A stretch of DNA of 64,000 nt from Ehretia macrophylla (lineage: Eukaryota > Streptophyta > Magnoliopsida > Boraginales > Ehretiaceae): NCBI GenBank assembly GCA_037974665.1, contig CM075782.1, forward strand, positions 47,539,351-47,603,350, given 5' to 3'. Below are positions 12,250 through 64,000 of the stretch, piece by piece. The position numbers and the translations under genes were made by a program. The notes below the pieces were generated by a model. It had not been told where the DNA came from. It did no database searches and saw only the letters and a program-made list of their open reading frames with translations. How positions within the stretch are numbered: position 1 is the stretch's first letter; the number at the start of each line of letters is the position of its first letter.

Positions 12250-12744
12250 CTAAGGGTCGGGGCCTAGTCGAAGCTCTAAATCTAAATCGTTTTCTTGTTT
12301 CTTGTCGTTCGACATTTTTCCCATATTTTCCACAAGCTCTGCACCAAATTGCAAGCTGAAGCTCAATTTCCAATCATCTCCATATGGATTTAAACCCTCC
12401 TCGTTGCGATCATGTGAATTATTACAATGGTTTTCATCATACAACGATTTTGCTGATGTTGATGCTGGAAAAAACGTGCGATAATTCATTAATTGTGCTT
12501 CATGAGATGCAAATATTTGTTGGTAAACCCTAGGCCCTGTGTAATTATTCTCTTGATCATGCTTGTTCGAAGTCGTCGTAGGTTTGTTCTTGGCTTTGTC
12601 TTTTCTGTGGATGTTCATGTGGCCACCTAAGGCTTGTGCTGTTGTGAAGCCTCGTTTGCAAAACACACACTCATATGATCGCCCTAAACCAACGTTGTTG
12701 TCTTCATTGGAGTTTTCAGATTCACCAACATGGTTCGATTCCAT
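12250..12744 (-). CDS. C2H2/EAR zinc-finger repressor, TAC1/SUPERMAN type
   Basis: Single-exon nuclear transcription factor of 164 aa. One C2H2 finger with C26, C29, H42, H46 carries the plant-specific QALGGH (residues 37-42) and reads [20 protein letters not shown]. The C-terminus has the EAR repression motif LDLELRLG, which in this family recruits TOPLESS-type corepressors. The short acidic N-terminus before SYECVFC resembles TAC1-like rather than SUPERMAN proteins, but subfamily placement is inferred. An in-frame ATG at 12792 would add 16 residues. I prefer 12744 because the TATA box is at about 12827-12834, putting the likely transcription start at or just before 12792. No introns or breaks. 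Confidence 0.9.
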
Positions 12745-12826
12745 GGCTATATGGTAATGAAAATCTTGGAAAATATATTTGTCTATGTTCAAATTTGTGG
12801 TAAAACAAAGCTGTGATATGCAAATG

Positions 12827-12834
12827 TTTTTATA
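12827..12834 (-). promoter_or_regulatory. TATA box of zinc-finger gene 1
   Basis: TATAAAAA on the minus strand, about 85 nt before the preferred start codon. It favours the 12744 ATG. Confidence 0.55.
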
Positions 12835-12916
12835 GTGAGATAGAGGTGAGGAGGATCATAGGCAAGAAACAATTAATTTTAGGGTTTAGCCATTTCCACT
12901 TTAGCTCATTGAAGTT

Positions 12917-23493: not shown

Positions 23494-24102
23494 TTAAGAA
23501 TACCCAAGTCGAAGCTCTAAATCCAACTCCTCCTTTGCATCTTGGAGCAAATCAATGTCAAAGTCCAGTGTAACCATCTCCTTTTTCTTCGAAACCCTAA
23601 AACCACTTCTCTTTGCAAAACCTGTCAACTCTCCAAGCTGAAGAAAAGCTCCTTCGTTCAGATTCTTCACTATATCTCCTCGGCGAGGGTTCATTGGATC
23701 GCGCAGAGAACGAGCGACAATGGGTAAGTTTTTATCATCTATGGAGGCTGAAGATGGTGAAGAGATCTCAGTGAAAGATGACTTATATGCCATAGAAGGT
23801 AAAAACCTAGACATGGGTGATGATGGTGGATGATGTGTTGATGAAGAATTAGGGTTAGGGTTTTGTTTAAGGATATTATTATCCCATGAAGGTGAAAGTC
23901 TCATTTTAGCCCTATCTCTCCTGTGAACATTCATATGACCACCAAGAGCTTGTGCAGACTTGAACTCTTTCTTGCAGAAACTGCACTTGTAGTTGTTTCT
24001 TTGAGGCCATGAGTATCCATATGTAAGATCTTTTACAAAGCTAAATTTGGTGATGTCTCGTGTGCCTTTGAACTTTTCATTCCTCAAGTTCACTTTCTCC
24101 AT
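23494..24102 (-). CDS. SUPERMAN-like C2H2/EAR zinc-finger protein
   Basis: Single-exon nuclear repressor of 202 aa. The SUPERMAN-type N-terminal block [15 protein letters not shown] leads into one finger (C40, C43, H56, H60) with QALGGH at 51-56 and the basic tail [14 protein letters not shown] Ser/Pro-rich middle follows, and the C-terminus ends with the EAR motif [10 protein letters not shown]. This order (SWP, finger, basic, Ser/Pro, C-terminal EAR) is that of SUPERMAN, RABBIT EARS and ZFP10/11, regulators of cell division and organ boundaries. The exact orthologue cannot be settled by eye. A TATA box lies about 150 nt upstream. A partial copy of its 3' end sits 100 bp downstream. Confidence 0.9.
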
Positions 24103-24147
24103 GTCTTTTTTTCAATGTTAAGATCTGAAACAACAGAACTATACCCC

Positions 24148-39700: not shown

Positions 39701-42700
39701 TTTCCCAAAGATGTAGGAATGTGTTCTTTGTTCAATTTTTCAGACACCAACTTCAACATAGCACAATTTGGATTCGGTATGTTAGATAGCATCATTTTTC
39801 TGATATGGTATTTCAATGTTCCATTGTGAGCTCCACTAAATGGAAAATGTTTCTCAAGTGGTCAAGAAATAAGACAAACGTCATCTTACCTGAGATCCTT
39901 TAAGCCCCATCTTGTCCAAAATCTTTTTACAAGCTAGTTTTTCATCAGAACTGCAAATATACATGAACAGTACAAAATTAATTTTGTACAATGGCAGCAA
40001 CTCAAGCTGATTTAGAATGAAATATGGCTAAGAGACACATAAATGTCTTTCCCCCCTCTGACTACATTAGTACTTACTTTCCTTCCAAGGCCTCAGGAGC
40101 AAGAAGACCAAACCGATTCAGAAACTCAAAAAATGTCTTGCGAGTAGGGTACCCAGCACAACTAATTCTAATTGCCTCAAGAACACCCTACATTTATATA
40201 AAAGTTAGCATGTTAACTAAGAATTATTTTCTTTACTAGATTACATTTAAAAGAAAAAAAGAGTGAAATGTCTTGGTATCGAAACATTTAATAGAACTCA
40301 CGCCACAACGTAATTGCTGCAGGATATTGACATTCTCAAAAATAGCAGGTTTAAGAAGATTATTGGGTTTCACACATCTAATATAGTGGGGTTCTGTAGA
40401 ATTTAGCGTCTCCATCAACTGCTGAAGTTGTAACTGCACACAAGACAAATTTCACATATAAGCTTTTACTATTTGTAGCACAAAGGACATGAGACCTTTG
40501 GTAATCACACCCTTGCTAATATATTGCCAGGGATTAAATTTCCATACAAAGCTATCTGCATACCTTAAAGCGAGAACCAATAGATGAGAACTTTGAAGAT
40601 TTGGATGAAGATTTACTAGTCTCCTCGGGGATGGGAGGAAAAAGCGCTGCTACAAAAGAGCATTTTGAAGCACTTAACAAATCTTGATGCTCAGGGACAA
40701 CATAGTCTTTGTTCTTATCTAAAAATTGATCAGACTGATATTGAACCTGACAAAAAAGAAAGAACCTTCAATGCAGCAGAATTCTATTAAGAGAACACAT
40801 AATAGAACTCTTAAAGGTAATAAGCATTTCAAATTACCTCTCCAGCATAATGAGCAATGGTAAAATCGGTGCGAGACAATTTAGGTTTGACAAAACGCTT
40901 GTGTTTGTTGAACGTCTGGTATAGCTTTTGAGAAAATGTTTCATGAGTTGACTTGGGAAACATACTGCAAAATAAAGGAATTCCATTAAGTATGTGAATC
41001 AATTCCAGTGTCATAAATAATAGCATGAGAACCAACTTTCCATGACAATAGCAATCAAACCGGCTGAAAAGCATGCAAATATACTTAAATGGACCTACAC
41101 ACAGATACATATGTACATTGCAGATAGAGTATCCATTTTACCAGGCTTCATCAAGAAGAGCAATAATCCCTCCAGGTTTCTGCAAAATAGGCAATACAAG
41201 ATCTCTTATTATAATAATGCTTCAGAGGTGGAGTGGGAAAATCTATAACAGCAGCAACTAAGAACAGTACAAAAATTTACAATGAGTAATCACAATGAGT
41301 AACTCATTCAAAATCAGCTATTGCCCCCCTTCTGTGAGACACTATAATTAGCCTCACAGCCATTCTTCACATATAAAGGCTAAACCCCACAGAAAAAGAA
41401 CGTTCTAAGCAAACTCTTTCATCTTTCCATTGTGAAAGTTAAAATTCTCAGCTGTGGTGCATTATCCATTGCAAATACCTAATCAAATAATTCCAAGGTT
41501 TAAATTGACTGCCAAAAGCTTTTACGAGAGACTATAAAGGTCTTCAAAATGAATTAAAATGCCATGAAGCATTCTAGACTCTCGATTAAAGTCCAACTTT
41601 ATATTTCATTGGACTTTTTCATTGCATCTATTCAATAATGCATCTAATTTTTGGTTTTGTTCTCTTATTCTTTTCATATTTTAGCTTATTAAAATATCTG
41701 GAACAGAGATGTTGGCTTGTATGGTATTTTGATTGGGCCTAAGAAACTTTTTCTTAAAAGGGAACGTACTGCTATAATTATGTTAATAAAGATTTTCAGA
41801 TGGAAAAGAACAAAAAGGAAAAAGAAAAAGACTATTCAATCACTGCTTTGTCCTAACAAGATACAACTAGTCACATAAATATTACATCACAGCTCCAACT
41901 TTTATGCCATTGGGAAGCTTCTGTATGCACACATTTATCACCTTGACAAGATGTATGCAATCATCCTTACTAATATTGAATTCAACTTTCGTAGACTCTG
42001 CATATCGTTGATGAAATAAAGTAAAACACAAACTAGTAAATAATTTCAAGTGGCAGAAAAAAAGAAGAAACCAAGCAAAGATATTGGATGATATTCTGTT
42101 GTACAACAGATCAAATGGACCTTGGCCCTTGTGGCAAAATTTTTTTCCTCAAAATGCTTACATTTTAGATATGCCAGAAACTAGAGAAACTCGGACCTAT
42201 AATTGGCCAATCTTAACGCAGCAGGGCACTATGCACAGAGTTCATTGTCAATATACAACTCCAGAGCAATATTCCCACACAGATACAGCAATAAGAACAT
42301 ACTAAACAAAGAAAAGAAAATTCCACTCTAGCCAGGTGGGCAAACCTTTTCAATTAGATCCAGGACATCTTGATTGTCAACAAATTCTATGTAGCTCCAA
42401 TCAATTTCTTCTTTGGTGTACTCCTCCTGCTCCATCTTAAACACATGCTGAAAGAGACAAATACTTCAGTTAAATTTGGGAACCAGATTAAAAGGAGGCC
42501 ACCAAATATGTCAATATCTATACCTGGTTAAAATGTTGTTGCAGCTTCTCATTCGTAAAGTTAATGCAAAACTGTTCAAAACTGCCAAAACAGATTGTAA
42601 TTGTAAATAAGCCAATCCAAGGAAAAAGATCCTCATAACTCCATGCATATCATTTTTGTTCTCTTATCTTGCCTACCTGTTAGTTTTAAAACTTTCAAAA

Positions 42701-45700
42701 CCATATATATCAAGAACACCAATGAGAGATTTCGAGTTTGGATCTTGCCCAATTGAGTTATTAATTTTGTCCACCAACCTAAAAAAATAATAAGAACAGA
42801 AACATTTTAAGCGCATAGCTGATACCGAGGAACAAATGGCTAGCATAACAATTATGACGATTAGAGAAAGAAATGGTGGTGAAACCAGCATCATACCAAT
42901 CAAACAAGCGTGAATATAAGGTCTTAGCTAAGCCGTCCCTACTAACAGCTGCACCATCAGGGTCGAGACTTCTTTTGATAACTTCTTCAGGGGTAACCAT
43001 TACACGCTTCAAAAGTGCATCTTCCAGTGCCTCAGGATCACACCTGATATATGACGGAAAATCAAATCAAATGCAAAAGAAGGACAAGGGAAAGAGAGAA
43101 TTATCAAGGCTTTGCCCATACATAAGAAGCTCTGCCGTTGTTTGAAGATGGAATTTAGATTTCTCATCTTTGAGAACTGACGAATCAATTTCTTTACCCT
43201 TGGCAAATTCAAGGTTACCAATATGGAGAATTGAAGCCACGACTCTGAAAATTGATTCCTGAAAGACGAAAAAATCAGATATTTGCAACTTTCGGTATAT
43301 AATTGTAAGCATGTACAGAAAAACATACTTGTCTAGAGCTGTACCTGCTCCTGTTGACTTATTCCAACAACATCCATGGCCCTTCTCGTTGCAAGGTAAT
43401 CATGAGCATCACTTACACCAACCAGTTCATAGCAGTTGGACTGATTCAGATAACGAAATGATTTTGGATCGCTCAACTTATACTTCTCGATTTCCTGTCA
43501 AAACAAATGATGTGGCAAAAAATTGGCAGGCTTTTCGACAAGACATGTATGACACCGGAAGAGAACATCACATTAATGCAAAATACCTCCTGTGGTGCTG
43601 CACAAAGAAGATAGAAACAGTGATAGTTGCGTTCAGGATCTGAAATTTGACAAACTCGAGATCTCTCAAGAAGGTAAGTCCTAATGGCTGCTCCTGATAT
43701 TCTTCCATTCTTATCAAATTGGATCTCAACAAATTTACCAAAGCGACTGCACCAACAGATTTAATAAGCATCAAGATGCAGGAGTAACAGACTACTACAG
43801 AACTTTCTAAATGCAATTAAGTCAGTTTAATATCACTGGATGATTCCACTACTGGCTCACCTGGAATTATTGTTTCTGACAGTTTTTGCATTGCCAAATG
43901 CTTCTAGCACCGGGTTTGACTGCACATAGAATATAAAGATAAAACTGTATACGATCGAGAACAGAAAGGTGATATATAAATATAAATTATCTCAACCATA
44001 AGTCAACACAGAAGTTGCATATCAAAACTTTGTCCAAGAAATAGAAACCAAGAGAAACTTTTTGAAGATTTTGAGAAAAACATTGATGATAAATCTGCCA
44101 CTATTAGAACCCGTTTTCTTCCCTTTATTCCTATCCAAAGCAAGAAGTCAGCAATCCCTTTACCCCGTTCCCCTTGTAAAATACTGGATTTCTATCCACA
44201 CTGTTCCTATATTTTGAATTGAAACAAATTAGAATTCTCAACTCTCTATGTAATCTTAATTTCAATTATTCTAGAACCTAAACATTTTAGACTGTTCATT
44301 TACAACATGAATTGCTACATTATGGTTATAACCATTATCCTTTCAACACCTTTCAAGAAAACATGTTCCATTAATTTAAATTACATTGTTTCTAGGGCCT
44401 CAATCTTAAATAGGGATCTGCATGCATACACTAATTTCATATATAGAATTTGGCTTATCATATTTGGCATGACTATCATATTATGGCAAGCTCAAGTCTG
44501 CCAGATGCCAAATGATGCAACAAGATCATATCCAAGCTGAGCAAATCAATCATGTACGTATAGTACATTTCCAATAACACATGGAAATACAGTGGAAATG
44601 AAACAATCTGATACTCAGAAGTAGTATAGTGTTTTGTGGATTCTGAAAATTATTTGAAAACTTGTGAAATCTCCATCGATATATCCATGCTATTGCAAAT
44701 ATATATCCTAGAAGATGTCTATTATTTGGTCCTAATGGAGAAGGAAATATCCAATCAATATCATCAACAGAAAGATTGGATCCATCTCCATAGCATAGGC
44801 ATTGGATATAGGTATGAGAATCAACCATTACAAAGAGATTTTAATCACTTGTGCATAAGCATATAAGGAATCTCCATAGATCCAGAGCGTTCAAAAATGT
44901 TTCTGAAAATTGATAGCAGAGGCTGGAAGCTTTGAATTTTCTTGCAGTCTATTTTCATAGTCCTTAACATGTACAAAAGCTCAAGGGGTTTACTTAATGC
45001 AAAGCTACAAATCAACATCAAAAAGTCAATAAAGGATCATACAATTCTAAGGAAGTGTACTGATCCACACCTCCTATCTTTTCCTTAACCCTTAATCTGA
45101 ACAGAAGCATCAAAACTATGTTAAATGGAGACCTATATTTCCTAGGCCCAACCTGTAAACTTATAAATCAACCGTCACTTCTTCTTAGCATGCTATTTGA
45201 AGCTGTCCAATGATTGGCTGTGTTTTGGCAACATAATCCATGTTCTATGTCAATTACCATTCATTGATAGAGAACTTAGCAAAGAGTTCAAGAAAAGCAT
45301 GAAACTTTAGGGGCACAGATGAAGTTGCATCATCCTCTTACCTCTAATACTTGCTGTTCTACAGTCCTTCCTTCAGTGCCTCTGCGGCCACCCAGATAGG
45401 CAAGGTAGCGCATAAGCATTTTGGTGGTTTCTGTCTTACCAGCGCCACTTTCACCACTGACCAAAATTGAGTTACTCTTCCCCTCATTGATCATAGCTCT
45501 GTTACACTTTTAGCAATTTAGTATACTACCAACCTGAAATATGTACAACAAAATCTGAACAATCACCTGTAAGCAACATCTGCAATTGCAAAAACGTGAG
45601 GGCTCAATTCTCCAAATGGTGCTCCTTTGTATTGTTCCATCATGTGGCCATCATACAAGTGTGGCAATCTTTGGAATGGATTAATGGCAATAAGAATACC

Positions 45701-48058
45701 TCCAGTGTAAGTCTGCCATAGTGTCAGAGTAGGATATAATATTATGAGTAAGCCACCCATAGCTGTAGTAATTCACTGTTTTCTTTCACCACTGCGAGCG
45801 AATGTCAAAAGAGAAACTAATCCTATTAGATCTTACATAAATTTCATTAAGTTGATATCTTGCTGCCAAGTTATGCAGAACTCCGGGTTCATGCAGATAT
45901 GATAGTTTGGTCATGTCATCAACTCCCCCAGCAGGAGCATCCTCATCTTTGGGGTAAATCTTTGACAAATTTGCAGTAACCTGGAAATTTGTAAGATTAC
46001 TATTAGTAATCTGCCAATAAGAAAACATTATTTCTCGAATTAGATGAGTATTGACACAAGCAGAACAGTGGATAAATTGTGTACATAACTGGGCAGTAGG
46101 CGCCCAAATAGTGGTTATGCAAGGGAATTAGTCTTTAATTTTTGCTTTTGGACTCTCATACCCAATATGGGAGTACAGCATTTAGTCGATACTAATACTA
46201 GAAAAAGAAGCTATCCTACGAAAGTTAAAGTAGGTGTTTTTCTCTAAAAGTGTCTGTGTCATTGTCCTTTAGGAAGGTGAAGTGTGTGAAATCAGAAATA
46301 TAAACTGCTATTTGAAATGTATGCTCTTCAATTACCGTCCTTCCATCAGATGTATTGATCTCAACCTCTTCTTTATTTATCTTCGTTACTTGTCCATCAA
46401 TCCAAGCAACGTTTGGGTCTTCAACCCAAACATGAGAACCCACAATGATATTAACAGGAGTACCCTGCAATTGAAGTTCTAACTTTTCAGAACAAGATAC
46501 TTAAACCAATACTAAAGATATGCAGTCTGATAATTATATAGGTAACTATAACAACAAAGAGAAGCTAAATGTACAACAAGCAAGCAGTCCAAACTTTGCG
46601 AAACTTGTCCCTTTATTGATATTGAGAGTAAAACAAAGTTTGACGAAACTAATTGTTGGATGTATACTTCTACATCAACAACAGATATGATGTTTTACAT
46701 GAAAATGTACGTAAGTTTCTTATTCCATCTCAATAAGATGACAACTAGTTCTCCGAGTCAACTTCGTTTTGACTGAGACAACACTAATTTTTCACTTTAA
46801 GATGTTAACATCTATTGACAAAAAGAGTAAAACTCATTATAAAACCAAAAATATGCTTCTCCTTCACTCCCATAGTGAAATAGAAAAAAATATACTCTAT
46901 GTCTCATGTTCTTCAGATATCATTACATTTTACATAATGCCTCTATTTTCCACCTTATTCAAATTCACATGTTAATTAACATTAATACGAAACTTATGTG
47001 ACAACAAATTTCAATTTCAGTTATATAATTTAGTACCTAATTCATCAACAACATTGATCCTCCAAACCCTAATCACCATATACACTTTCATTACAATTGT
47101 AAAACACAATATTTCCAGAATTTCCTTAAACAAGGAGAGATACAATAAGACATGCAAAAAAATCTTCAGCATTTTGTCTAAGTATTATGCCGAAGTTGCA
47201 CGATAAATCTTATGATATCAAGATAATCAAATGAGCAAAGAAGAATAAAACTCACTACACCTTGTGTACAGTAACATGTCAAGTAGCAGCCTTAGGTTCA
47301 TAATATTGTCACATTCTTATAAAACATATGTGTTATTACATTATTACATGACCGATGATCTTATCAATGATAGGCATTATTACATTATTATGATACTAAC
47401 AAAAAATTTAACATGGAATTTCAATAAAATACGATAAGTTTTTTATAACCTTTTTAACTCTAATTTTGATAGTTAAAAGCAACTAACATTGAAATCCTAT
47501 CACATCAATATAATCTGACAAGCAAAGAAGAATATAACTCACTGCACCTCGTGTCTAGCAACATCTCCAGTAGCTGCCTTGGGTTTATTATCACATTCTT
47601 ATAAAACATACACGTTATTACATTATTACAAGACTGATGATCTTATTAATAATAGGCATTATTACATTGTTACGCTATTAACAAAAAATCTAACATGCAA
47701 TTTTGATAAAATATGGTAAGTTTTTTAACCTTTTAACTCTAATTTAGATAGTTAAAACCAATTAACATTGAAATCCTATCTAGCAACATGTCTAGTAGCT
47801 GCCTTAGGTTCATTATCACATTCTTATAAAACATACGCGTTATTACATTATCACATTACAGATGATCTTATCAATAATAGGCATTATTACATTATTACGC
47901 TATTAACAAAAAAAAAAAAAATCTAGCGCGCAATTTCAATAAAATACGATAATCTTTTTTTAAACCTTTTTACAGTAATTTAGATAGTTAAAAGCAATTA
48001 AAATTTAAATGATCAGATCTTTCTCCATTGATTATAAGTAAAAGAAATCCATTACCAT
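27705..48058 (-). CDS. Class XI myosin heavy chain (XI-K/E/J-like), 38 coding exons
   Basis: Actin-based motor for organelle transport. The coding exons, all GT/AG and in phase, total 4,575 nt = 1,524 aa, normal for the family: 48056-48058, 46336-46464, 45837-45980, 45567-45712, 45342-45498, 43861-43919, 43587-43746, 43345-43494, 43122-43258, 42897-43043, 42677-42778, 42524-42581, 42346-42447, 41142-41179, 40838-40964, 40564-40746, 40302-40433, 40078-40187, 39890-39950, 39108-39285, 38352-38557, 38154-38273, 37492-37590, 37164-37385, 36907-37046, 32388-32502, 32268-32294, 31928-32182, 31687-31830, 31411-31614, 31141-31284, 30153-30223, 29948-30047, 29816-29872, 29370-29426, 29208-29288, 27939-28021, 27705-27831. 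Seen: SH3-like start [14 protein letters not shown]-loop GESGAGKT (156-163), switch I NNNSSR (209-214), switch [10 protein letters not shown] (434-441), six IQ motifs from about 742 to 880 (the fifth has IE for IQ), coiled coil about 884-1075, and a DIL/globular cargo tail with [20 protein letters not shown] and [10 protein letters not shown]. The coding part of exon 1 is only the ATG. XI-K/E similarity is inferred from memory; XI-J is possible. Confidence 0.95.
32503..36906 (-). other. Myosin intron 25 (4.4 kb), carries foreign exon-like sequence
   Basis: By far the longest intron of the gene. Exon 25 ends and exon 26 begins in matching phase (AG/G), so splicing across it keeps the frame. 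It contains the exon-like pair described separately and a short Pro-rich open stretch at about 33915-34013, partly due to a run of Gs on the plus strand (33967-33977). Confidence 0.75.
34721..35426 (-). other. Unassigned exon pair nested in myosin intron 25
   Basis: A 337-nt open exon at 35090-35426 has a canonical acceptor (GTCAG) and donor (GTTAGT). It begins [20 protein letters not shown], continues [20 protein letters not shown], then a Ser/Thr/Asp-rich stretch, and ends [15 protein letters not shown] plus one base. Joining in phase to an acceptor at 34773 gives [17 protein letters not shown] and a stop (34721-34723). I do not recognise the family. It is not part of the myosin consensus. 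A myosin read-in is possible only through an internal acceptor just before the ATG of MIYSMSD (phase AG/G). No upstream exons were found, so it is either the 3' end of a captured gene, a nested gene, or an alternative myosin terminus. Confidence 0.45.
46465..48055 (-). other. Myosin intron 1, with 3-copy ~287-bp tandem repeat
   Basis: The intron separates the ATG from the rest of the coding sequence. Copies at about 47217-47503, 47504-47776 and 47777-48001 share GCAAAGAAGAATA-AACTCACT (copies 1 and 2), GTAGCTGCCTTAGGTTCAT or close variants, and a TTATTACATTATTAC core. The third copy lacks about 60 bp at its start. Identity is moderate, so the array is not recent. Confidence 0.75.
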
Positions 48059-49855: not shown

Positions 49856-49864
49856 TTATTTGTA

Positions 49865-51196
49865 TGAGTAAGAAACTTTTAGGTCCCTTAAGTTTTGTAA
49901 AAGTAATATTTTGGTCCATCAACTTTTAAAAAGTGATTATTTGATCCATTTTTTACAAAAAATTGACAAAAAATGTTCACTTTTTTTGTGATTTTCTTAT
50001 TTTACCCTTGAACCCATTTTCTCTCTCATGCATGGCATTATGCACCATTTTTGGCAGCCATGGGATATCACAAAAAATGAAAAAAAAAATTTCACCAAAA
50101 ATCACCAAAAAATTCACAAAATATACTTGTCCAAACCAAAACAAAAAAATACAATTTCTACAAAATGACTTAAACATCATCATCCACCACAGTTAGAGAA
50201 TAAATAAACAGAAAAATTATAAAGTTAAAAAATATGAGATATTTTGTTTTTTCTCTTTTAAAATCAAAACAAAAAAATGAAGTGGTCCACTACAAGAAAA
50301 ATTGAAACGGGCGACGAATTTTTTTTCATCACTAACTGGCAATAGATTTAGCGAGAAAAACATTCAGTCAATAATTAGTAACGGATTAATGACGACTGAA
50401 AAAATTTATAACTAAATTTTGTCACTAATCTCTCGCAACATCCCGACGGATTAGTGATGACCGATAGATTTGTGACGGAATAGCAACGGCATGTCGTAAT
50501 TCCTTCACTAAATCCGTCACTAAATAGCAACAAAATTAGCGACGAAATTTAGAAAAAAATTAAAGATAAGCAATAAAATAAACCTGATTTTGTCTATTTT
50601 CATTCTGAAAATGGCTCGGACATCAAATTAAGTTAAAAAATACTTGTTCATATTGTCAACGGAGTGTTAAATGCATTTTATAAGAAATTATGATTTGTAA
50701 CATTTATTTTTTGAGATAAATACTTATTTTTTTAGCTAATTCCGTCACTAATTAGCGACAGATTTAACGACGGACTTTCATATTTCTAATTCAGATATGC
50801 GATCAATTACTTTTGACCCACAATAATATCTCATATTTTTTAACTTGATAATTGTTCCGTTTATTTATTCCCTAACTGTGGTGGATGATGATGTTGAAGT
50901 CATTTTGTAAAAATTGTATTTTTTTATTTTGGTTTGGACATATATATTTTGTGAATTTTTTGGTGATTGTTTGTGATTTTTTTCTGATTTTTGGTGATAT
51001 TTCATGGCTGTCAAAATGGTGCATAATATCATGCATGAGAGATAAAATAGGTCCAAGGGTAAAATAGGAAAATCACAAAAAATTAATATTTTCCATCACT
51101 TTTTCATAAAAAATGGACCAAATAATCACTTTTTAAAAATTGAGAGACTAAAAAGTTACTTTTACAAAACTTGAGGGACCTAAAGGTTTTTTACTC
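49865..51196. mobile_element. Foldback / Mutator-like long-TIR element (family D)
   Basis: Perfect 9-bp target duplication TTATTTGTA (49856-49864 and 51197-51205). The arms are inverted repeats of about 370 bp, from GAGTAAGAAACTTTTAGGTC at the left to the inverse at the right, through TTTGGTGATTTTTGGTGAAA-like and CTAACTGTGGTGGATGATGA. The two arms differ by scattered substitutions. The loop (about 50250-50820) contains a CACTA-like end. The open frames in the two arms are mirror images and not genes. Confidence 0.85.
50288..50777. mobile_element. CACTA-like sequence in the loop of the foldback element
   Basis: CACTACAAGAAAAATTG at 50288 is a canonical plant CACTA terminus, followed by many subterminal CGTCACTAA / TTAGCGACGA motifs to about 50777. 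The opposite terminus (TTTTCTTGTAGTG) is absent. It appears to be a truncated element lodged inside, or captured by, the foldback. Confidence 0.6.
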
Positions 51197-51205
51197 TTAT
51201 TTGTA

Positions 51206-53917: not shown

Positions 53918-54253
53918 ATGAAGACTATCAATATGATCTTAGCTTGTCTAGTCATGGTTATCATTCTAAGTTCTTTTAAATGTCACGAAGCGATTAGAAT
54001 CCTCGATGAAGATGAAGAAGTATTGATGAAGAGGGAACACATCCTGCTACCATCTCTGCCAAGGGGTCCGGTTCGGCCTCCTTCACCGAATGGATGCACG
54101 TTCATCCCCGGTGGTGGTGGTAGCCCATGCACGTTAAACGAGAGGAACTTTGCAGGACATGCTATGACAACCTCTCCTCCTCCTCCTCCTCCTCCTCCTC
54201 AAGCATATCCACAACATACGGTTTCTTTCGGTGTTGCAACTGAAAAAAAATGA
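53918..54253 (+). CDS. Small secreted Pro-rich, Cys-containing peptide precursor
   Basis: 111 aa, single exon. An N-terminal hydrophobic signal peptide (residues 3-20, MKTINMILACLVMVIILSSF, probable cleavage by about residue 25) is followed by an acidic/basic spacer (RILDEDEEVLMKRE). Then comes a likely mature core (about 45-81) SLPRGPVRPPSPNGCTFIPG, GGGSPC, and TLNERNFAGH, with two cysteines (C60, C71) that could pair. The tail has eight consecutive prolines (87-94). Layout, length and the RGP-x-PPSPNG-C core resemble plant signalling-peptide precursors that are cut and hydroxylated, but I cannot assign a named family. A TATA box sits 77 nt upstream. It could also be a cell-wall Pro-rich protein; the conserved-looking core argues for a peptide. 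Confidence 0.75.
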   Translation: MKTINMILACLVMVIILSSFKCHEAIRILDEDEEVLMKREHILLPSLPRGPVRPPSPNGCTFIPGGGGSPCTLNERNFAGHAMTTSPPPPPPPPQAYPQHTVSFGVATEKK

Positions 54254-54682
54254 GTCAGCATGCTGCTAGTGACCGTGACAACATAATACAATATTCTTTG
54301 ATCTTAATTATCAGTGTCCCTAACAAAGTAAAGCCAACATTTGTTTAACTCAATTATTATTTTTTTCATTAATTTTGGATTCGTTTTGTATATTTTCAAA
54401 GAATAGGGGGAAAAAAAAAAGTAAAGAAAAGATTAAGATTTGTATCAATATTTTGTATTGTATACTTCTGATAAGCTCAATTGCCTTCTTAGGCTAACAA
54501 TTTCACTATCTCTTGTTGTTCAATTTGTACTTGTTGAATTGAGTTGATACATATTTTTGGTAAAACTTAGGTATTGAAGCGAAACACCAACCCCCCCTCC
54601 CTCCTCCTTCCCTCCCAACACACACACACACACACACACTCTACCGCAAAAAGAAGGTCGTTGAGACATTCCAGATACAGAG
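54254..54682. other. 3' flank of peptide gene and (CA)n tract
   Basis: No gene. A C-rich stretch and a CA microsatellite (54618-54640) lie just left of the point (about 54683) where homology to the second SGS3 copy begins. Confidence 0.5.
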
Positions 54683-55258
54683 TTGAAAAGAAAATAAATA
54701 CGGCACACTTGCAACGTAATGAACCATGTCCAACCATTAACATGTCAACATATTGAAATGGTTAAACCTGTATTGATAATATTAACAAACTTAAGTCACT
54801 ACAAACTGTATGTATATATTTTATAGAATCAATGTGGATTACATATAGAAGAGAAAATTGACGTCCAATTCCTTACAATTAGAACCGAAATAGAGGATCA
54901 TAACCATGACATAAACTATTCCAGATACATAATTAGTTTGACCAGAAATAGGAGAAGTGGCATGATGATCAAATCAGAATTCTAGCAAGTGTAATCCAGA
55001 AGAAAGCCCCGAGTCAAATGTCGAGCAGTTTTTTTCCTTCCTTTATTTTTTATGACGCTATAAAGTCCGTGGTGCACTGGTGTATCCCAACAAAAGACTA
55101 GCATTTTATCATACACACAGAATCCCCTTTTTATCCCTTAATCAAGGCAATAGAACATACAAAAGCTCCTCTTATTTTCCTTCAGTTAAGGTAAACCTGA
55201 CGCTAACTGGGCAGTGGAGAAAATATCGTCAAAAACTCATTACCTGTGCCTATGATCC

Positions 55259-58200
55259 TCAATCGAAGGAGGATTGCCTTGAGACTCCTTCACCCTTCTC
55301 TTCCTGCTGTATCTTCTCGAAATTCTCCTCCTTAATCATCTGCAGCATCATCTTCAGCATCATCTTCAGCCCCTCCTTGACGAACTGCTCCAGCGAATCC
55401 ATCTAAGGAAAATGCGACACAGCAGCAATTAGTAAAGAGAAGCGCAAATTTGAAAATACAAGCAAGCATGAACTACAAAACCGCAACTATGGCCAACAGA
55501 ATGATGCTGTAAAAAAATTGAGGATAAAACAATAGAGAAGATATCAACTAGACCATTCAGCCTAACTTCTAGTACGAAGCCTGTATGCTGTTAGTTGAAT
55601 AGGTTAAGCAATCATTATTTGTTTAAAATCCAAACTACCAATTTATAAGTTTGGAACAAATCAGTCCAGAATCTTTGCTTTAGTTGATTGAAAATCTATT
55701 TTCATTTTCATTTCCCTGATTTGATAGATAATGTAAGATTGCAATTAGAGAAGTACTACCTCTTCTTTACTCTGTTCCTGATGCATCTTGATTCTCTCCT
55801 GGAGAATTTGATTTTCTTCAAACGTCTTGCGATATTTCTCACTTAAAATACTGTAAGCTTCTTCAAGGGCCTTCGAATGTTTCTGCTCCTTGGCAACTTT
55901 GTTCTTGAACCAAATGAGCTGTTGGTTGTCCTCACTCATTTGTTTCACAACCATTTCTTGGTATGAACGCATCTCAAACTTCAACTTCATTTTGCCTACT
56001 CAATAAGACAACATGTCAGTCTAGCATTATCATATTAAAGAGCATAAAATTTCAATTTAATCATCCCGTGTCATATGGTGAGAGATCGAAAAAGGAGACA
56101 CACCTTGAGAGTGCTGGTTGAAATGTTCCAAATCTCTTTTCTCAGCCATGTAACCAAAAAGCTGGCGTTTTCCACCAGGACAGAATGCTACACGCCGGCT
56201 TTCCCAGGCAGTCCTCTCCCTTCCATTGTCCTCAAAATGCTTACTTAGACGCTCTGCTTCTAAGTATCCAATTGCTGATGCCTCAAAGATCAAGACACTC
56301 ATACCGCGGTGTCCCTGTGGACCATAGGAATGCCGAGCCTTTACAGCATCATAAGAGCTAAAGCAGTCTAGAAGCTCTTGATTTCCCATGCCAATCCACT
56401 GCAAAATATTCAACAAAAAACAAGCATAATTAGGAGATTGATCCAGATTTCTGTACCAGAAGTTCTGGAGCCAAGTGCTCTGCAGACAAGTGTTGAACCG
56501 AGATAGAAATTGGAATGCAGGATTGAACATGATAGATAATAACTTTAAGAGCATAATCAGCAGGCTGGGCTGATGAGAAAGTGCTTATCACACGAGGAAG
56601 GAGAGAAATATGAGCAAATTCCAGGAAGCACGTAGACAACCTTACAAGCTTCTGGCAGAAGTTGCTACCACAGTTCAGCAAAGAACTTGTGAGAATACAA
56701 CCAAAGGCATACCTTTCGAGTAATTGTATAGGGCTGTATGCCTTCACTGTTAATGTCATTCAATGAATTATGACCATAGTTACCAGATTCACCCTACTCC
56801 CCTTGGAATTGCGTATAGGATTCCACATCCCAATTCGCGGTACATTTGCATATCGAAACGCTACAATTCGCGTTTCAGTTTACCCAAACAATATACAAAC
56901 TTTTAGTAGAAAAATAATAAAAGTGAACAAAGAACCTAAAAATTACTTACATATATATGTAAAGTGTAAACATTTGTTAAGATATAAAAATATTCTAGTT
57001 TGTTTTTGTGTCTTTTGCTTGATATACAATATTAGAAAATTATCTTAGCTTATGGAATTTGGATTTTGGACTTTAGGCTTAACTTTGCAACAAATTGATT
57101 TTAGTATTATTTTACATAATATTTGGTAAACAAACCTAATAATTCTTCATATCGTACTGTGAATCCAATTAGCGTACTAAAGAAATCTACCCCCATTGTA
57201 CCCTATAAACTTCTAGTGTCATATCCTGTACCCGAACTCGTACCACGACTCGAAACGTACCCCGTAACTATGATTATGACTAACAAAATAAATTTAGTTA
57301 CCAAAAAGAAAATTATTCGTTGCAGAAAGGAAAAAGGCATGATTGTACCTTGTCATTTTCATCTTTTTCAAGTATTGTGTTCATGATGATCACCATAGGA
57401 GGCCAAACTATTTCTTTTTCTACTCTTTCATCCATTCCTTTCCATGACCCGAAAACTTCCCCAGCAGATATGACTGAAGTTCCCCTTCTTCGCAACTCTT
57501 CTTCCAATAGTTCAGCAAGTTTTCTGTGGCGCTTCACCCTTTTCGATCCTTTTGTTTTAGCGTGCGTAATGAGAGGCTGCAACCCATTATACCATTCAAT
57601 TGCCCCAGGACCTCCTTTGCATGCAGGGCAATGCCACTGTCTTTCTGGCTCGGTTATCTGCTCTACTGTCAAGCTATCCAAACATTCAAATAGCTCCTTA
57701 AACCAGCGATCCTTCTTATATGTCTCGTGGCTCTTCTTGCTAGCATCAGAGTCAAAACCATCACTTAGAAGTTCATCATCACTGTCATCAAGAACATCTG
57801 AGTCATCAACCTTAACATCCTCAACGTTTTCAGGATTAACACTTGCCACATTATTCTTTCTGCCCAGTCCATCTGATGACTCAGCAGATGCAGCACTTGT
57901 GGACCAACCCCACTCATTCCTAAGAGGAGGACCAATAGCAGGTGTTGGTGCAGCATTGTTATTATCATAACCTCGGATCAATGATTGCGGTTTCCGATTT
58001 GCCCTGCCATCAGGCCTCTTAGGCTCAGTAGGCTGCGTACGCCAGTTCTTGCCAGGACCCTTTCCTGACCCAGCATTGCTCCGCATCCGCAGCTTCTGAA
58101 CAGGGACCGCAATGCCCCGCGCTTTGGAAGCAGAATTCTTAGGAACCCGTTTTCCGCCACCATTTCCAGCCTTGTTCTTGGACTTCCTTGAATAAACCTC

Positions 58201-58359
58201 CCGTCCTTCCTCCTGCCCTGCATCCAAGCTGACACCTGCGACACCCTGACAAGACTGATCGGGCCCTGGGCTCGATCCTTCTACTACAATTTTCCCCTTA
58301 ACTGATGGATCAGAAGCACCAGTACCAGAAAGCTTTTCACGTGCCCTTCCCGAACTCAT
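55259..58359 (-). CDS. SGS3: SGS3-like protein, copy 1, lacking the terminal exon
   Basis: SGS3 binds RNA and works with RDR6 to make double-stranded RNA for tasiRNA and antiviral silencing. Exons: 57349-58359, 56104-56398, 55760-55995, then 55402 to a stop at 55261-55259. Predicted 561 aa (Arabidopsis SGS3 is about 625). Exon 1 has the low-complexity N-terminus, an acidic DDSDDELLSDGFDSDASKKS region and the zf-XS domain (QWHCPACKGGPGAIEWYN, H-x-H). Exon 2 is the XS domain (HSYGPQGHRGMSVLIFEASA). Exon 3 starts the coiled coil. Exon 4 is one base longer than in copy 2; after QQEE the frame shifts and stops, and the final exon (VEEIANF-) is missing downstream. Start chosen at 58359 (MSSG, as in Arabidopsis MSSR). 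It may still yield a zf-XS/XS protein with a cut coiled coil, or be a decaying copy. Confidence 0.85.
56775..57272. mobile_element. hAT-like non-autonomous element in SGS3 copy 1 intron 1
   Basis: 498 bp bounded by inverted CATAGTTAC ... GTAACTATG and by an exact 8-bp duplication ATTATGAC (56767-56774 and 57273-57280). The corresponding intron of copy 2 (near 63880) runs straight through one ACTATGAC, the empty site. No coding sequence; the 8-bp duplication points to hAT. Confidence 0.85.
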
Positions 58360-58367
58360 TTTCGCAT
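58357..58367 (-). promoter_or_regulatory. Three-codon uORF overlapping the SGS3 copy 1 start
   Basis: ATGCGAAAATGA: the upstream ATG at 58367 encodes M-R-K, and its TGA overlaps the main ATG (58359-58357) by two bases. Confidence 0.5.
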
Positions 58368-58378
58368 ACAATCACTGG

Positions 58379-59211
58379 CTGCAACACACAAAAAGCCTTA
58401 AAAATTAGGTAAAGAACGGTGTTGTTAACAACAGAAGTATCAGATGATATTGATGATGGCAAAGCACTACCCAACTCTGATTTCATGTTAAGAATCTCTT
58501 AACAACAGTGTTGAATATAACAAATAATATAATAAATCTCTTTATAATAATTTTAAATGATACGGTTATTTAACATGGTATCAAAGCATGGGTACCAAAA
58601 AGATCCTGAATTTAAAACTCACCGCCACCCATTTAAAAACATTAAAAACTGTCCAAGTACGCAATTAGGAAAACCACAGTTTATTAGCTAGGAAAAAAAA
58701 CTGGATTAATTAGAACTATCAGAAAAAAAAAAAAAAAAAAAATTGTTGCCATGGCATGTAAGCTAAATTATGATACTTCTGAATAGACAAGATTACCTGA
58801 TCAAAAAGAAAAACATCACCATTACATGTCTGCCAAATTCAAGAAATGATCCAACAAGGACCAAAGTTTCAAGAACAAAACCAAAAGGGTATCGATCAAA
58901 AAATTCATACGCGTTTTGATAAAGTTGTACTTAGATATTATGTTACAATGATAATTTAGTATTTACAAGAACGTAACAAATAACCTCCCATTATTATCAA
59001 ATACACAAGACTGTCGTTAAACAAATACGTTAAGCTAATACGAATCTAACATAAAATTTCGACAAAACTATGCAACAACGTAAACTAGACTGCATGCTGC
59101 AACAGCAAAGTTTAGTAACACATTTCCACCAAAAAATAAATAGAAAGAAAAATAATACAATGAATAAAGCAAAATAAATAAATATAAACAATAAAATTAA
59201 ATGCTTCTAAC
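58379..59211 (-). other. Probable 5'-UTR intron of SGS3 copy 1
   Basis: A good acceptor (TTGTGTGTTGCAG) lies 19 nt before the ATG, and a donor-like TTTCAG/GTTAGAAG at 59212/59211 follows a GC-richer stretch (about 59212-59275) that looks like a first exon. The intervening 833 bp are AT-rich with poly-A runs. Inferred, not proven. Confidence 0.45.
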
Positions 59212-59279
59212 CTGAAATGCTTACAAGAATGGCTTCGTAGTGTTGAGAGTGTGTGCGTGTTTGGAGTGTGTGTTTTAGA

Positions 59280-60297
59280 AGTTTATTAATAGAAAGTGAG
59301 GGAGATAGTGAATAGACCAAAATACCTTTAAAAGAAGTGGAGGCCACAGTGAATTGACCAAAATGCCCAAACAAAAGTATTTCTCAAGTCAAGCAATAAG
59401 AGGTAAACTCTATAGAGAAGTCAATGTGTGGGTCCATCATGCAACGGAAATATCAGGTACCAATAATTTTCTTAGACTAATATATTCCACTTCTTTTAGT
59501 TGAAATTACTATAATCACCCCTGTTGCATGCATAAGAGGGTCATGACCAGAAGGACAATCTCGGTCCAATTGAAGAAAGTTATAAAAGCAAAAGGAAAGG
59601 TGAAAGACACGAAAGAGAGGAAAGGAAAAGCATTTGATAGGACAACAATGAGTTAATGACTTGGTGGCAAAGAATGGAATGAGCCAGATTCCCAAGTTGT
59701 CGTGCAGCTTTTTCAACAAAAGATTCCAGCCCACAGCCCATTGATGCTTCACTCTGAAGGATTGTCAGAATATTTTGAAGGGTAATTGTAATTATTAGTT
59801 AAAGTATATCTTTTGTGAAATTAATTAATGTGTAAATTGAATAGTAAATTTTGATTTATAATAGGTATTAAAAGTTTAAGTGTTGAATCATTTTTTAAAT
59901 GCGTTGCGACCATTTTTGGAGTCAAATAAGCAGGGTGAAACATCACTTAGAATTGTTACTGTTTAAATCCCGACTTTTAGCCTCTTTCTAAACAAAAAAA
60001 AAAAAGAAAAAAGAATGGAATAGTACTGAATGAAAAAAAAAAGAAAAAGGAATGGAAGAGGTAAAAAAAGGGAGGAAAGGAAAAGCATTTGATAGGACAA
60101 CAATGAGTCAATGACTTGGTGGCAAAGAATGGAATAGTTTCTCCCTTAGCCTTCGTCCAGTGGTATCCTTTTCGGCTGCAAGAGATTTTGAATTTAACTT
60201 TGGTAAGTGATACTTTTTAACATTTATTGTACGATTTATATTTTTCTTGAATAAAAAGAAAAATGTAGTTATAAAAGATATAATGGAATTGTTAATA
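59280..60297. other. Intergenic between SGS3 copies; no gene seen
   Basis: Contains a 64-bp direct repeat (59617-59680 and 60072-60135, one mismatch) and, between them, another copy of the SINE-like 3' end (AGGGTGAAACATCACTTAGA near 59933, followed by poly-A at about 59993). Confidence 0.5.
59617..60135. repeat. 64-bp direct repeat, 455 bp apart
   Basis: The stretch starting GAGGAAAGGAAAAGCATTTG occurs at 59617-59680 and 60072-60135 and differs at one position. Confidence 0.85.
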
Positions 60298-60625
60298 TCA
60301 CGTGTCATAGTATGATTTGAGGGAAAAATATCGATAAGATTTTGAATATTGAGATATATGATTTTTAATGTTACGCGTTATATTGCAAATATCACATGTT
60401 GTAGTACAATTTAAGGAAGAAATGTCAATAAGATTTTGAATGTTGCAATACAAGAAATTTATACGATGAGATTTTTAAATTTACGTGAATGTCCGTAAGA
60501 TTCTGAATGTTGCAATACAAGATATTTATACAATCTCTTTAAATGTCATTTGTTATAGTTTGATTTGAGGAAGAAATATCGATTAGGTTTTGAATATTGA
60601 GATGTAAGAGATTTATATGATAGAT
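60298..60625. repeat. Degenerate tandem array built on AAGATTTTGAATRTTG
   Basis: About four units, each with a TCATRGTATGATTTGAGG-like and a GATAAGATTTTGAATATTG-like block (near 60305, 60405, 60475, 60545), spaced roughly 65-110 bp. Confidence 0.6.
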
Positions 60626-61067
60626 TTTAATCTGTGTGTATAAGCACAAATGGTCCAAAATTGTAACGATATAGGACTTACTTATCGATTTTACCGTATT
60701 TTTTTGGTCTTGTAATTTGTAGGCCCATTTCTTGAGTAGATACACGAGTTTTTTTTTCATTTTTTTTTTTTTGGTTATGTTAACAAAGACTTGTATAAAT
60801 AATATAAAGACGAGCTGTTAAGAACGTAACAGAGGTAGGATGGACACTTAGAATGATTTACAAGTAGCCAGCACCATATTTAGAAGATTTTACTTGAAAT
60901 GCTAGCATCAAGTTGCCAACAATCATAGATAGATGAGTTCAAAAAAGTTGGCAAAAACTTCCAAGTAATTATTTTAGTGAGGAAAAATTACACAAATGGT
61001 ATCATAGTATCATACTACAATTAACAAAAGGTTTTGGGTTTAAACCACCCTGCCACCAATTTGAGAA

Positions 61068-61104
<37 letters not shown>

Positions 61105-61501
61105 AAAAGACACAATCCTGCTCGTACGAAAATAACACGTTAAACTTGTAAACGATGCGGTTGATTATCAAGCTATGCCCCACAATTACACGTCACCAAG
61201 CAGAGAAGCAAGATCCAGAAATAGAGATGGAAGAGTACTTTTCAAGTAGAGAAACAATATCAAAGCAAACCGGTCATGAGCACACAATATACACACAAGC
61301 AAGAAGTATGAGGCCTTACAACACAAAAGACATTAACCATCATTGAACACCAAGATTTTCCAAAAGCAAAGCACCAAAGTTGCTATAAATAGGTTTTACA
61401 TGCTTCTATTCAAGTATCCTGGGGGCCAAAGTCATATCAAGCTTAATAACGATCTAAACAAGGCAAACAAGAAAAGCAAATCTCTCGGCAGTGATCATGC
61501 A
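60626..61501. other. Intergenic and 3' flank of SGS3 copy 2
   Basis: No other gene. A (CA)n(TA)n microsatellite lies at 61069-61104. The part next to 61501 should be the 3' UTR. Confidence 0.45.
61069..61104. repeat. CA/TA microsatellite
   Basis: (CA)n followed by (TA)n, 36 bp. Confidence 0.9.
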
Positions 61502-64000
61502 TCAGATGCTGCTGTTATTGCTAGTGACCAGCTCAGAATGGTCAGGGGTGTATTTCTTCATCAACTTAGCAAGTTCAGCATCAAACTCTTTCTCTAAAGC
61601 AACCTGTTCTTCCCAATGCCGACGCTTCAGTTCAAGCATTCTCCCTTCATGGAGTTTTATCAACTTCTCCCTCTCTGCAGCAAATTCTTCCATTTCGTGA
61701 TCCTGGCACTGAATGAAGTTTGCAATTTCCTCCACCCTATATGGGAAAAGAAGAAAAGAAAATAAATACGGCACACTTGCAGTGTAATGACCCATGTCCA
61801 ACCATTACCATGTCAACATATTGAAATGGTTAAACCCGTGTTGATAATATTAACAAACTTAAGTTACTATAAAGTGAATGTATATCCTTTGTATAACCAA
61901 TGCGAATTACATATAGAGAAGAGTAATTGGTGTCCAATTCCTTACAATTGGAACTGAAATAGAGGATCATAACCAGCACATAAACTATTCCAGATACATA
62001 ATTAGTTCAACGAGAAATAGGACAGTGGCATGATGATCCAATCAGAATTCTAGCAAATGTAATCCAGAAGAAAGCCCCAAGTCAAATGACAAGTAGATTT
62101 TTTTATTTTTTATTTTGAGGAGGAGGCTATAAACCCCGAGGTGTGCCCTAACAAATGATAAACAGTTTATCATACAAACAGAATCCCCTTTTCTCCCATT
62201 AATCAATCAAGGCAATAAAGCATACAAAATTTCTTTTGTTAGTTTCCATCAGTTAAGGCAAACCTGATACTAACTGGACAGTGGAGAAAATAGCGTCAAA
62301 AACTCATTACCTGTGCCTATGATCCTCGATCAAAGAAGGATTGCCTTGAGACTGCTTCACCGTCTCTCGCTCTTCCTGCTGTATCTTCTCGAAATTCTCC
62401 TCCTTTGCCTCCCTGGCTTCATAAATCATCTTCAGCTGCTCCTTGAAGAACTGCTCCTGCGAATCCATCTAAGGAAAATACGACACAGCAACAATTAGTA
62501 AAGAGAGCAAATTAACAGAAAGAGAAGCACATATTTGAAAATACAAGCAAGCATGAACCACAAAACCACAACTACTGCCAACAGAATGATGCTGTAAGAA
62601 AATTGATGATAAAACAATAGAGAAGATATCAACTAGACCATTCAGCCTAACTTCTAGTACGAAGCCTGTATGCAGTTAGTTGAATAGGTTAAGCACTCAT
62701 TATTTATTTTAAAATCCAAATTATCAATTTATAAGGTTGGCAACAAATCAGTCCAGAATCTTTGCTTTAGTTGATTGAAAATCTACTTTTATTTTCATTT
62801 TCCTGATTTGATTGATAACATCAGATTGCAGTTCCAGAAGTGCTACCTCTTCTTTATTCTGTTTATGATGCATCTTGGTTCTCTGCCGGACAATTCGATT
62901 TTCTTCCAGGGTCTTGCGATATCTCTCACTTACAATACCATAAGCTTCTTCAAGGGCCTTTGAATGTTTCTGCTCCTTGGCAACTTTGTTCTTGAACCAA
63001 ATGAGCTGTTGGTTGTCCTCACTCATTTGTTTCAATTGTTTCACAACCATTTCTTGGTATGAACGCATCTCAAACTTCAACTTCATTTTGCCTACTCAAT
63101 AAGACAACATGTCAGTCTAGCATTACCATACTAAAGAGCATAAAATTTCAATTTAATCATGCCGTGTCATATGGTGAGAGATCGAGAAAGGAGAAACACC
63201 TTGAGAGTGGTGGTTGAAATTTTCCAAATCTCTTTTCTCAGCCATGTAACCAAAAAGCTGGCGTTTTCCACCAGGACAGAATGCTACATACCGACTTTCC
63301 CAGGCAGTCCTCTCCCTTCCATTGTCCTCAAAATGCTTACTTAGACGCTCTGCTTCTAAGTATCCAATTGCTGATGCCTCAAAAATCAAGACACTCATAC
63401 CGCGGTGTCCCTGTGGACCATAGGAATGTCGAGCCTTTACAGCATCATAAGAGCTAAAGCAGTCTAGAAGCTCTTGATTTCCCATGCCAATCCACTGCAA
63501 AATATTCAAAAAAAGCAAGCATAATTAGGAGATTGATCCAGATTTCGGTACTTATATATATTCTCTTGTAGCCAGAAGTTCTGGCGCCAAGTTCTGTGCA
63601 GACAAGTGTAGAACCAAGATAGAAATTGGAATGCAGGATTGAACATGATAGGTAATAACTTTAAGACCATAATCAGCAGGTTGGGCTGATCAGTAAGTGC
63701 TTATCACATGAGGAAGTAGAGAAATACGAGCAAATTCCAGGAAGCACGTAGACAACCTTACAAGCTTCTGGCAGAAGTTGCTACCACAGTTCAGCAAAGA
63801 ACTTGTGAGAATACAACCAAAGGCATACCTTTCGAGTAATTGTACAGGGCTGTATGCCTTCATTGTGAATGTCATTCAATGAACTATGACTAACAAAATG
63901 AATTTAATTACCAAAAAGAAAATTATTCGTTGCAGAAAGGAAAAAGCATGATTGTACCTTATCATTTTCATCTCTTTCAAGTATTGTGTTCATGATGATC
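61502..64000 (-). CDS. SGS3: SGS3-like protein, copy 2 (3' part; 5' exon off the window)
   Basis: Tandem paralogue of the gene at 55-58 kb, with an uninterrupted frame in all visible exons: 63958-64000 (end of exon 1, partial), 63200-63494, 62847-63091, 62311-62468 and 61502-61736. Exon 2 gives the XS domain and exons 3-5 the long C-terminal coiled coil that mediates SGS3 self-association. Exon 4 reads MDSQEQFFKEQLKMIYEARE and exon 5 VEEIANFIQCQDHEMEEF, ending at a TGA (61504-61502), as expected for full-length SGS3. Differences from copy 1: three extra residues (KQL or LKQ) in exon 3, RYVAF for RRVAF, and ENFNHHSQ for EHFNQHSQ in the XS domain, where the Arabidopsis protein has FNQHSQ. The start and zf-XS domain lie beyond the right edge. 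Confidence 0.92.

What the first reader, a model, noticed from the sequence alone, without database searches (positions are those of the whole stretch)
54683..64000. Asymmetric SGS3 tandem pair: one copy has lost its last exon and has a shifted exon 4
Copy 2 keeps the normal C-terminal exons. In copy 1 homology stops at about 54683, exactly where copy 2's intron leads into the last exon (61753), and exon 4 carries a net +1 base that replaces the conserved tail with a short different one and a stop. Exons 1-3, with zf-XS and XS domains, remain fully open. A truncated SGS3 with RNA-binding domains but a cut coiled coil could act as a dominant-negative or modulator of tasiRNA production, or be a recent pseudogene.
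Basis: partly seen in the sequence, partly recalled or inferred. Interest (0 to 1): 0.72.

Follow-up and report, generated by a model that had tools for sequence, protein, structure and literature searches.

The report
Truncated tandem copy of plant SGS3
Next to what looks like its one complete SGS3 gene, which plants need to amplify small silencing RNAs, this plant carries a partial copy that lacks the end of the protein but keeps an intact RNA-binding part; it may be a shortened working protein or a slowly decaying relic.

Summary
Two tandem SGS3 genes lie on the minus strand. Copy 2 runs past the window edge and is intact there: 5 exons, 655 aa. Copy 1 has open exons 1-3 with zf-XS and XS, a changed exon 4 (+6/-5 nt) ending at TGA 55259-55261 after 561 codons, and no exon 5. 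The copied block includes about 2 kb upstream of the ATG. Three old intronless SGS3 retrocopies of the same genome served as outgroups: full length is ancestral. In copy 1, codons 346-494 (XS, first coil) took 4 clear silent and 0 clear replacement substitutions, plus one 3-residue deletion; codons 495-536 took 9 replacement and 1 silent. So the tail seems released while the RNA-binding core stayed constrained, and 'recent pseudogene' fits poorly. Against this: exon 1 looks largely relaxed, counts are small, divergence is patchy so gene conversion may keep copy 1 looking intact, and no expression data exist. A selected truncated protein and a conversion-refreshed pseudogene remain close rivals.

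The parts
57349..58359 (-). copy 1 exon 1 (ATG at 58359, 337 codons, zf-XS inside)
   Evidence: open frame; copy 2's exon 1 is its 92% aa match in the genome; Pfam zf-XS 244-282
56775..57272 (.). 498-bp MITE-like insertion in copy 1 intron 1, absent from copy 2; 8-bp target duplication GTCATAAT (57273-57280, 56767-56774), inverted ends CATAGTTAC
   Evidence: genome copy number not obtained
56104..56398 (-). copy 1 exon 2 (most of XS domain)
55760..55995 (-). copy 1 exon 3 (first coil); 9-nt in-frame deletion relative to copy 2 and to three of three retrocopies
55244..55402 (-). copy 1 exon 4, +6/-5 nt, in-frame stop TGA at 55259-55261
54685..55243 (-). copy 1 remnant of intron 4; homology to copy 2 ends at 54684/54685; AATAAA at 55047
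54668..54679 (-). 12-nt string TGTATCTGGAAT just beyond the break, also in copy 1 intron 4 at 54929: possible templated filler of break repair
   Evidence: 56 of 20000 random window 30-mers share as long a string with intron 4; the string also occurs at 11212 and in copy 2 intron 4 (61998)
58360..60640 (-). copy 1 5' leader, its intron and upstream region, duplicated with the gene; carries a private insertion with a 97-bp direct repeat (59584-59680 / 60039-60135)
61502..64000 (-). copy 2: exons 5 (61502-61736), 4 (62311-62468), 3 (62847-63091), 2 (63200-63494) and the last 43 nt of exon 1 (63958-64992, continues beyond the window)

Best explanation
Copy 1 is a partial tandem duplicate of SGS3 that arrived, or early became, without its last exon. 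It carries a copy of the promoter region and an open frame for a 561-residue protein with the N-terminus, zf-XS, XS and first coil but no C-terminal coil. Most likely the protein was kept by selection for its RNA-binding core for a good part of its history and acts, if it still acts, as a non-standard SGS3 that binds dsRNA ends or joins SGS3 bodies without the full dimer interface, so as a dampener or accessory of copy 2. Shown: anatomy, ancestral state, lineage-specific pattern of change. Inferred: expression, protein stability, early loss of exon 5, any effect on RDR6-dependent small RNAs.
For: The copied block includes about 2 kb upstream of the ATG; 5' leader region 7.6% and next upstream part 5.3% diverged. 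With retrocopies as outgroups, copy 1 codons 346-494 (copy 2 numbering) have 4 clear silent and 0 clear replacement substitutions (P 0.0012 if neutral; 0.005 if one unclear site is charged to copy 1); codons 495-536 have 9 replacement and 1 silent (Fisher 0.005). Pairwise: body dN 0.013, dS 0.070; tail dN 0.120, dS 0.077. Over the same XS stretch copy 1 scores 98.7 bits and copy 2 96.9. The three indels between the copies in exons 1-3 are multiples of 3, against 4 of 27 in non-coding DNA; about 6.9 frameshifting indels expected in a neutral copy, P(0) 0.001. The stop is 15 nt before the exon-4 end, so junction-based decay is not expected (rule recalled). Literature passages: XS binds RNA and the coil forms the homodimer (PMC5333915); OsSGS3b does not homodimerise yet pairs with OsSGS3a, for which the coil of OsSGS3a is essential (PMC10366173).
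Against: The '0 replacement' count leaves out a 3-residue deletion that copy 1 has in the same stretch. The body/tail border was chosen after seeing the alignment, so the p-values are post hoc. If only copy 1 were neutral, the pairwise body count has P 0.043-0.074, not strong. With the lower indel rate of introns 1b and 2 the chance of no frameshift is 0.14. In exon 1, 12 of 26 substituted residues point to copy 1, 5 to copy 2, 9 unclear, by a recalled outgroup, near neutral (P 0.06-0.22); three tryptophans are lost; exon 1 pair dN/dS 0.45. In the stretch between zf-XS and XS covered by the C8 retrocopy (codons 293-345) copy 1 has one clear replacement (916) and one unclear (949). Divergence is patchy, so gene conversion may have refreshed exons 2-3. 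The outgroups are themselves decaying retrocopies. No transcript evidence.
Confidence: 0.47

Rival explanations
1. Copy 1 is a pseudogene of moderate age whose 5' two thirds look intact because gene conversion from copy 2 keeps refreshing them.
For: Patchy divergence: a low stretch over intron 1b to the start of intron 4 (48 of 783 intron sites vs 135 of 1385 overall; 0 of 5000 shuffles, sites taken as independent); intron 4 twice as diverged as intron 3 (p 0.003); exon 1 nearly relaxed and tryptophans lost; MITE and upstream insertion only in copy 1.
Against: Clear substitutions of copy 1 in codons 346-494 are silent (4 of 4; two replacement sites and one silent site unclear). Exons 1-3 differ by in-frame indels only (3 of 3).
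Confidence: 0.4
2. Copy 1 matters as RNA, not protein: its transcript, similar to copy 2, is a source of small RNAs or a decoy that regulates SGS3 itself.
For: Copied promoter region and 88.6-92.1% DNA identity to copy 2 over the two main blocks. That pseudogenes can give small RNAs is the subject of PMC2708354 (title and abstract start in search listings only).
Against: Does not explain the lack of clear replacement substitutions in the XS region of copy 1. Both copies have the same orientation, so no hairpin by arrangement.
Confidence: 0.08
3. Assembly artefact: a misjoin at 54684 removed exon 5 from a normal second gene.
For: No reads available; the junction is next to a GT- and GGA-rich low-complexity run.
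Against: The frame is already closed in exon 4, upstream of the break; the genome search for exons 4-5 gave 4 matches: copy 2 exon 5, copy 2 exon 4, a C11 retrocopy and a 60% fragment at C19:32.1 Mb, so no second close exon 5; the tail shows relaxed change.
Confidence: 0.05

Closest known systems
SGS3 (Arabidopsis, Nicotiana, rice OsSGS3a)
   Same: zf-XS, XS, coil order; copy 2 has all of it
   Different: copy 1 lacks the C-terminal coil and has changed N-terminal tryptophans
Rice OsSGS3b (PMC10366173, passages)
   Same: second SGS3 in one genome; reported not to form a homodimer
   Different: OsSGS3b is described there as carrying the plant-specific domains like AtSGS3; here the second copy is tandem and truncated
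XS-domain relatives FDM/IDN2/FDDM
   Same: XS domain; IDN2 and FDDM1 bind 5'-overhang dsRNA (PMC3342958, PMC8872474 passages)
   Different: those carry an XH domain; Pfam lists none in copy 1 at E up to 0.1; three other whole-region matches of copy 1 in the genome are only 24-26% identical

Membership tests
SGS3 | zf-XS domain | tested here: met
   copy 1, Pfam PF03470 39.2 bits, cut-off 22
SGS3 | XS domain | tested here: met
   copy 1, PF03468 119.2 bits, cut-off 25
SGS3 | C-terminal coil region after XS (exons 4-5) | tested here: not met
   copy 1 ends in exon 4, no exon 5; copy 2 has it
SGS3 | no XH domain | tested here: met
   one search lists XS and zf-XS only for copy 1
SGS3 | needed for RDR6-dependent siRNA production | not testable with these tools
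   needs mutants
Processed pseudogene | introns removed | tested here: not met
   copy 1 keeps introns 1-3 and most of 4
Duplicated (unprocessed) pseudogene | disabled frame, no constraint | tested here: inconclusive
   exon 4 disabled, exons 1-3 open; XS region constrained, exon 1 near neutral

The most novel reading that the evidence does not exclude
A plant genome has kept a dedicated short SGS3 that retains RNA-end binding but lacks the second coil, beside its single full-length SGS3, giving a built-in brake or tuner on secondary siRNA amplification.
Probability: 0.2. Interest if true: 0.6.

Novelty: new variant of a known kind. Interest (0 to 1): 0.36.

Why it matters
The genome searches found only one complete SGS3 gene here (the tool scores only the best candidates), so a change of its dosage or partners would act on the whole tasiRNA and antiviral amplification route. 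A natural separation of XS from the C-terminal coil would let the role of the coil be tested without engineered deletions. If it is only a relic, it is an ordinary partial duplicate.

Tried and rejected
Search for relatives in viral contigs: 5 stretches matched a pattern, 0 confirmed. PDB sequence search: no SGS3 relative at E up to 1, only two weak Pno1 hits. Rfam: 0 matches at gathering score in the window. Structure prediction was not tried: by its description the tool takes proteins that the DNA gives letter for letter, and these are spliced. An exon 5 further left was looked for in window and genome and not found. A misplaced allele was rejected on divergence. Target duplication around the copied block: nothing longer than 4 nt shared. 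One search used a copy 2 exon-1 end two bases short, so its e1end row is dropped (corrected); carry a like slip for copy 2's exon-1 end. The intron 1a row (88 sites) lies beside the MITE; it was used but left out of the indel counts. Whole-genome copy number of the MITE was asked twice and not answered. A scan for its end within the window found the two ends only.
Full report
Check of the observation. Both SGS3 copies are on the minus strand. Spliced by hand at GT-AG borders, copy 1 has exons 57349-58359, 56104-56398, 55760-55995 and 55244-55402. Its frame ends at TGA 55261-55259 after 561 codons. Pfam gives zf-XS at 244-282 (39.2 bits) and XS at 314-428 (119.2 bits). The net +1 is +6 and -5.

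What lies beyond the window. Copy 2's exon 1 is at C19:47603308-47604342, open and 92% identical to copy 1. Joined to the window it gives a 655-residue protein with five exons. The homologous block is 54685 to about 60640 for copy 1 and 61753 to about 66940 for copy 2; it includes about 2 kb upstream of the start codon, the outermost part at 82.6% identity. Right of copy 1 the block ends sharply against copy 2's own 3' flank, and no target duplication longer than 4 nt joins the two ends. The order is: left flank, copy 1 block, copy 2's 3' flank and exon 5, copy 2 block. This arises in one step if a block without exon 5 was inserted left of the gene, or in two steps if the whole gene was duplicated and the left exon 5 then deleted. 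The data do not separate these. A 12-nt string from intron 4 sits just beyond the break, as filler of break repair would; 56 of 20000 random window 30-mers share as long a string with intron 4.

Other SGS3 sequence in the genome. A scan for XS domains gave 15 places; the copy 1 protein gave 13 matches; the tool calls such counts lower bounds. Among these matches only the two C19 genes look like SGS3 genes with introns. Three places (C8, C11, C13) are intronless SGS3 pieces, two of the three with stops, at 78-83% DNA identity to copy 2: old retrocopies. Of three further XS places that I fetched (C14, C7, C17), one gave a 24.5% match to copy 2's protein and two gave none at E 0.001. A query of exons 4-5 gave 4 matches: copy 2's two exons, C11, and a 60% fragment at C19:32.1 Mb; none near copy 1. 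So one complete SGS3 gene was found.

Which copy changed. The C11 retrocopy continues through exon 4 into exon 5 sequence, so full length is ancestral; three of three retrocopies keep the 9 nt that copy 1 lacks in exon 3. In codons 346-494 (copy 2 numbering) copy 1 has 4 clear silent substitutions (CDS positions 1101, 1146, 1236, 1482) and no clear replacement; copy 2 has two replacement sites in one codon. One silent site (1461) and two replacement sites (1309, 1320) are unclear. The 9-nt deletion of copy 1 lies in this stretch and is not in that count. In codons 495-536 copy 1 has 9 clear replacement sites (two in one codon) and 1 silent; copy 2 has 3 replacement sites and two sites in codon 505 that are silent one by one; three replacement sites are unclear. 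The copy 1 contrast gives Fisher p 0.005, and 0 of 4 has probability 0.0012 under neutrality; charging one unclear site to copy 1 gives 0.005. The border between the stretches was set after seeing the alignment. On a recalled Arabidopsis sequence the body gives copy 1 0, copy 2 3, unclear 1; the tail copy 1 15, copy 2 3, unclear 10, including the shifted stretch. Pairwise dN and dS: body 0.013 and 0.070, tail 0.120 and 0.077; exon 1 0.035 and 0.079. Body against tail in pairwise counts (5:6 and 16:2) gives Fisher 0.028; if only copy 1 were neutral, the body count has P 0.043-0.074.

Frame survival. Non-coding alignment columns (2575 sites) hold 27 indels, 4 of them multiples of 3. A neutral copy of exons 1-3 (1542 nt) would be expected to carry about 6.9 frameshifting indels; copy 1 carries none (P 0.001), and the three indels between the copies in exons 1-3 are multiples of 3. 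With the lower indel rate of introns 1b and 2 alone the same probability is 0.14. Substitution alone would leave the frame open with probability 0.19, 0.11 or 0.01 at 2.5, 3.5 or 7% change.

Evidence against a working gene. In exon 1, 12 of 26 substituted residues point to copy 1, 5 to copy 2, 9 are unclear, gap columns apart (recalled outgroup); copy 1 lost tryptophans at 53, after 71 and at 81. This is near neutral (P 0.06 to 0.22). Divergence is uneven: upstream 5.3%, 5' leader 7.6%, intron 1a 12.5%, intron 1b 5.3%, intron 2 4.6%, intron 3 7.6%, intron 4 14.1%. The low stretch is not reached in 5000 shuffles that treat sites as independent. Gene conversion between the copies would give this and would keep exons 1-3 alike without function.

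Mechanism. Passages say that XS and coil of SGS3 serve RNA binding and homodimer formation (PMC5333915), that the coil of OsSGS3a is essential to pair with OsSGS3b and that OsSGS3b does not homodimerise (PMC10366173). A crude heptad count of my own sees a coil-like pattern in exon 3 of both copies and in exon 5 of copy 2. Copy 1 could then bind RNA ends, pair poorly or only through the first coil, and dilute or tune copy 2. That step is inference. The stop lies 15 nt before the exon-4 end and an AATAAA lies at 55047, so a stable message is possible.

Novelty. Paper searches (listed rows only, some lists cut: 15 of 25, 25 of 130, 10 of 16, 10 of 13, 15 of 101 and 8 of 22) showed no title or abstract start reporting a truncated tandem SGS3; passages of six papers were seen. 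The library holds only openly licensed papers. A truncated tandem duplicate is a common kind of thing; what is less common is the contrast between a kept XS core and a released tail in a core silencing gene. I rate it a new variant of a known kind, of moderate interest.

Noticed in passing
53918-54250 (+): Small secreted-peptide-like ORF (signal-like start, Pro-rich, PSPNGCTFIPGG...NFAGH), convergent with copy 1; no Pfam match at E up to 0.1.
   Followed up: partly
56775-57272: 498-bp element with 8-bp target duplication and 9-bp perfect inverted ends, only in copy 1 intron 1; hAT-like by recall of target-site length.
   Followed up: partly
59584-60135: 97-bp direct repeat flanking 358 bp upstream of copy 1, where copy 2 is contiguous.
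   Followed up: partly
L022:4143-4706, L023:4329-4951, L021:4021-4175: Old intronless SGS3 retrocopies on C8, C11 and C13.
   Followed up: yes
L027 (C19:32116674-32116883): A 60% identical fragment of the SGS3 exon-5 region, 71 residues long, 15 Mb away on the same contig.
   Followed up: no
about 40800-46500 (-), probably to 27000: Myosin gene: Myosin_N over cut-off; of three Myosin_head pieces one is over the cut-off and two below. Extent and class XI by eye and recall.
   Followed up: partly
12253-12855 (-) and 23497-24111 (-): Two single-finger C2H2 proteins with LDLELRLG near the end, like SUPERMAN-type repressors (type by recall).
   Followed up: no
49863-51199: Inverted repeat: 50001-51199 matches its own reverse complement at 69%.
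   Followed up: no
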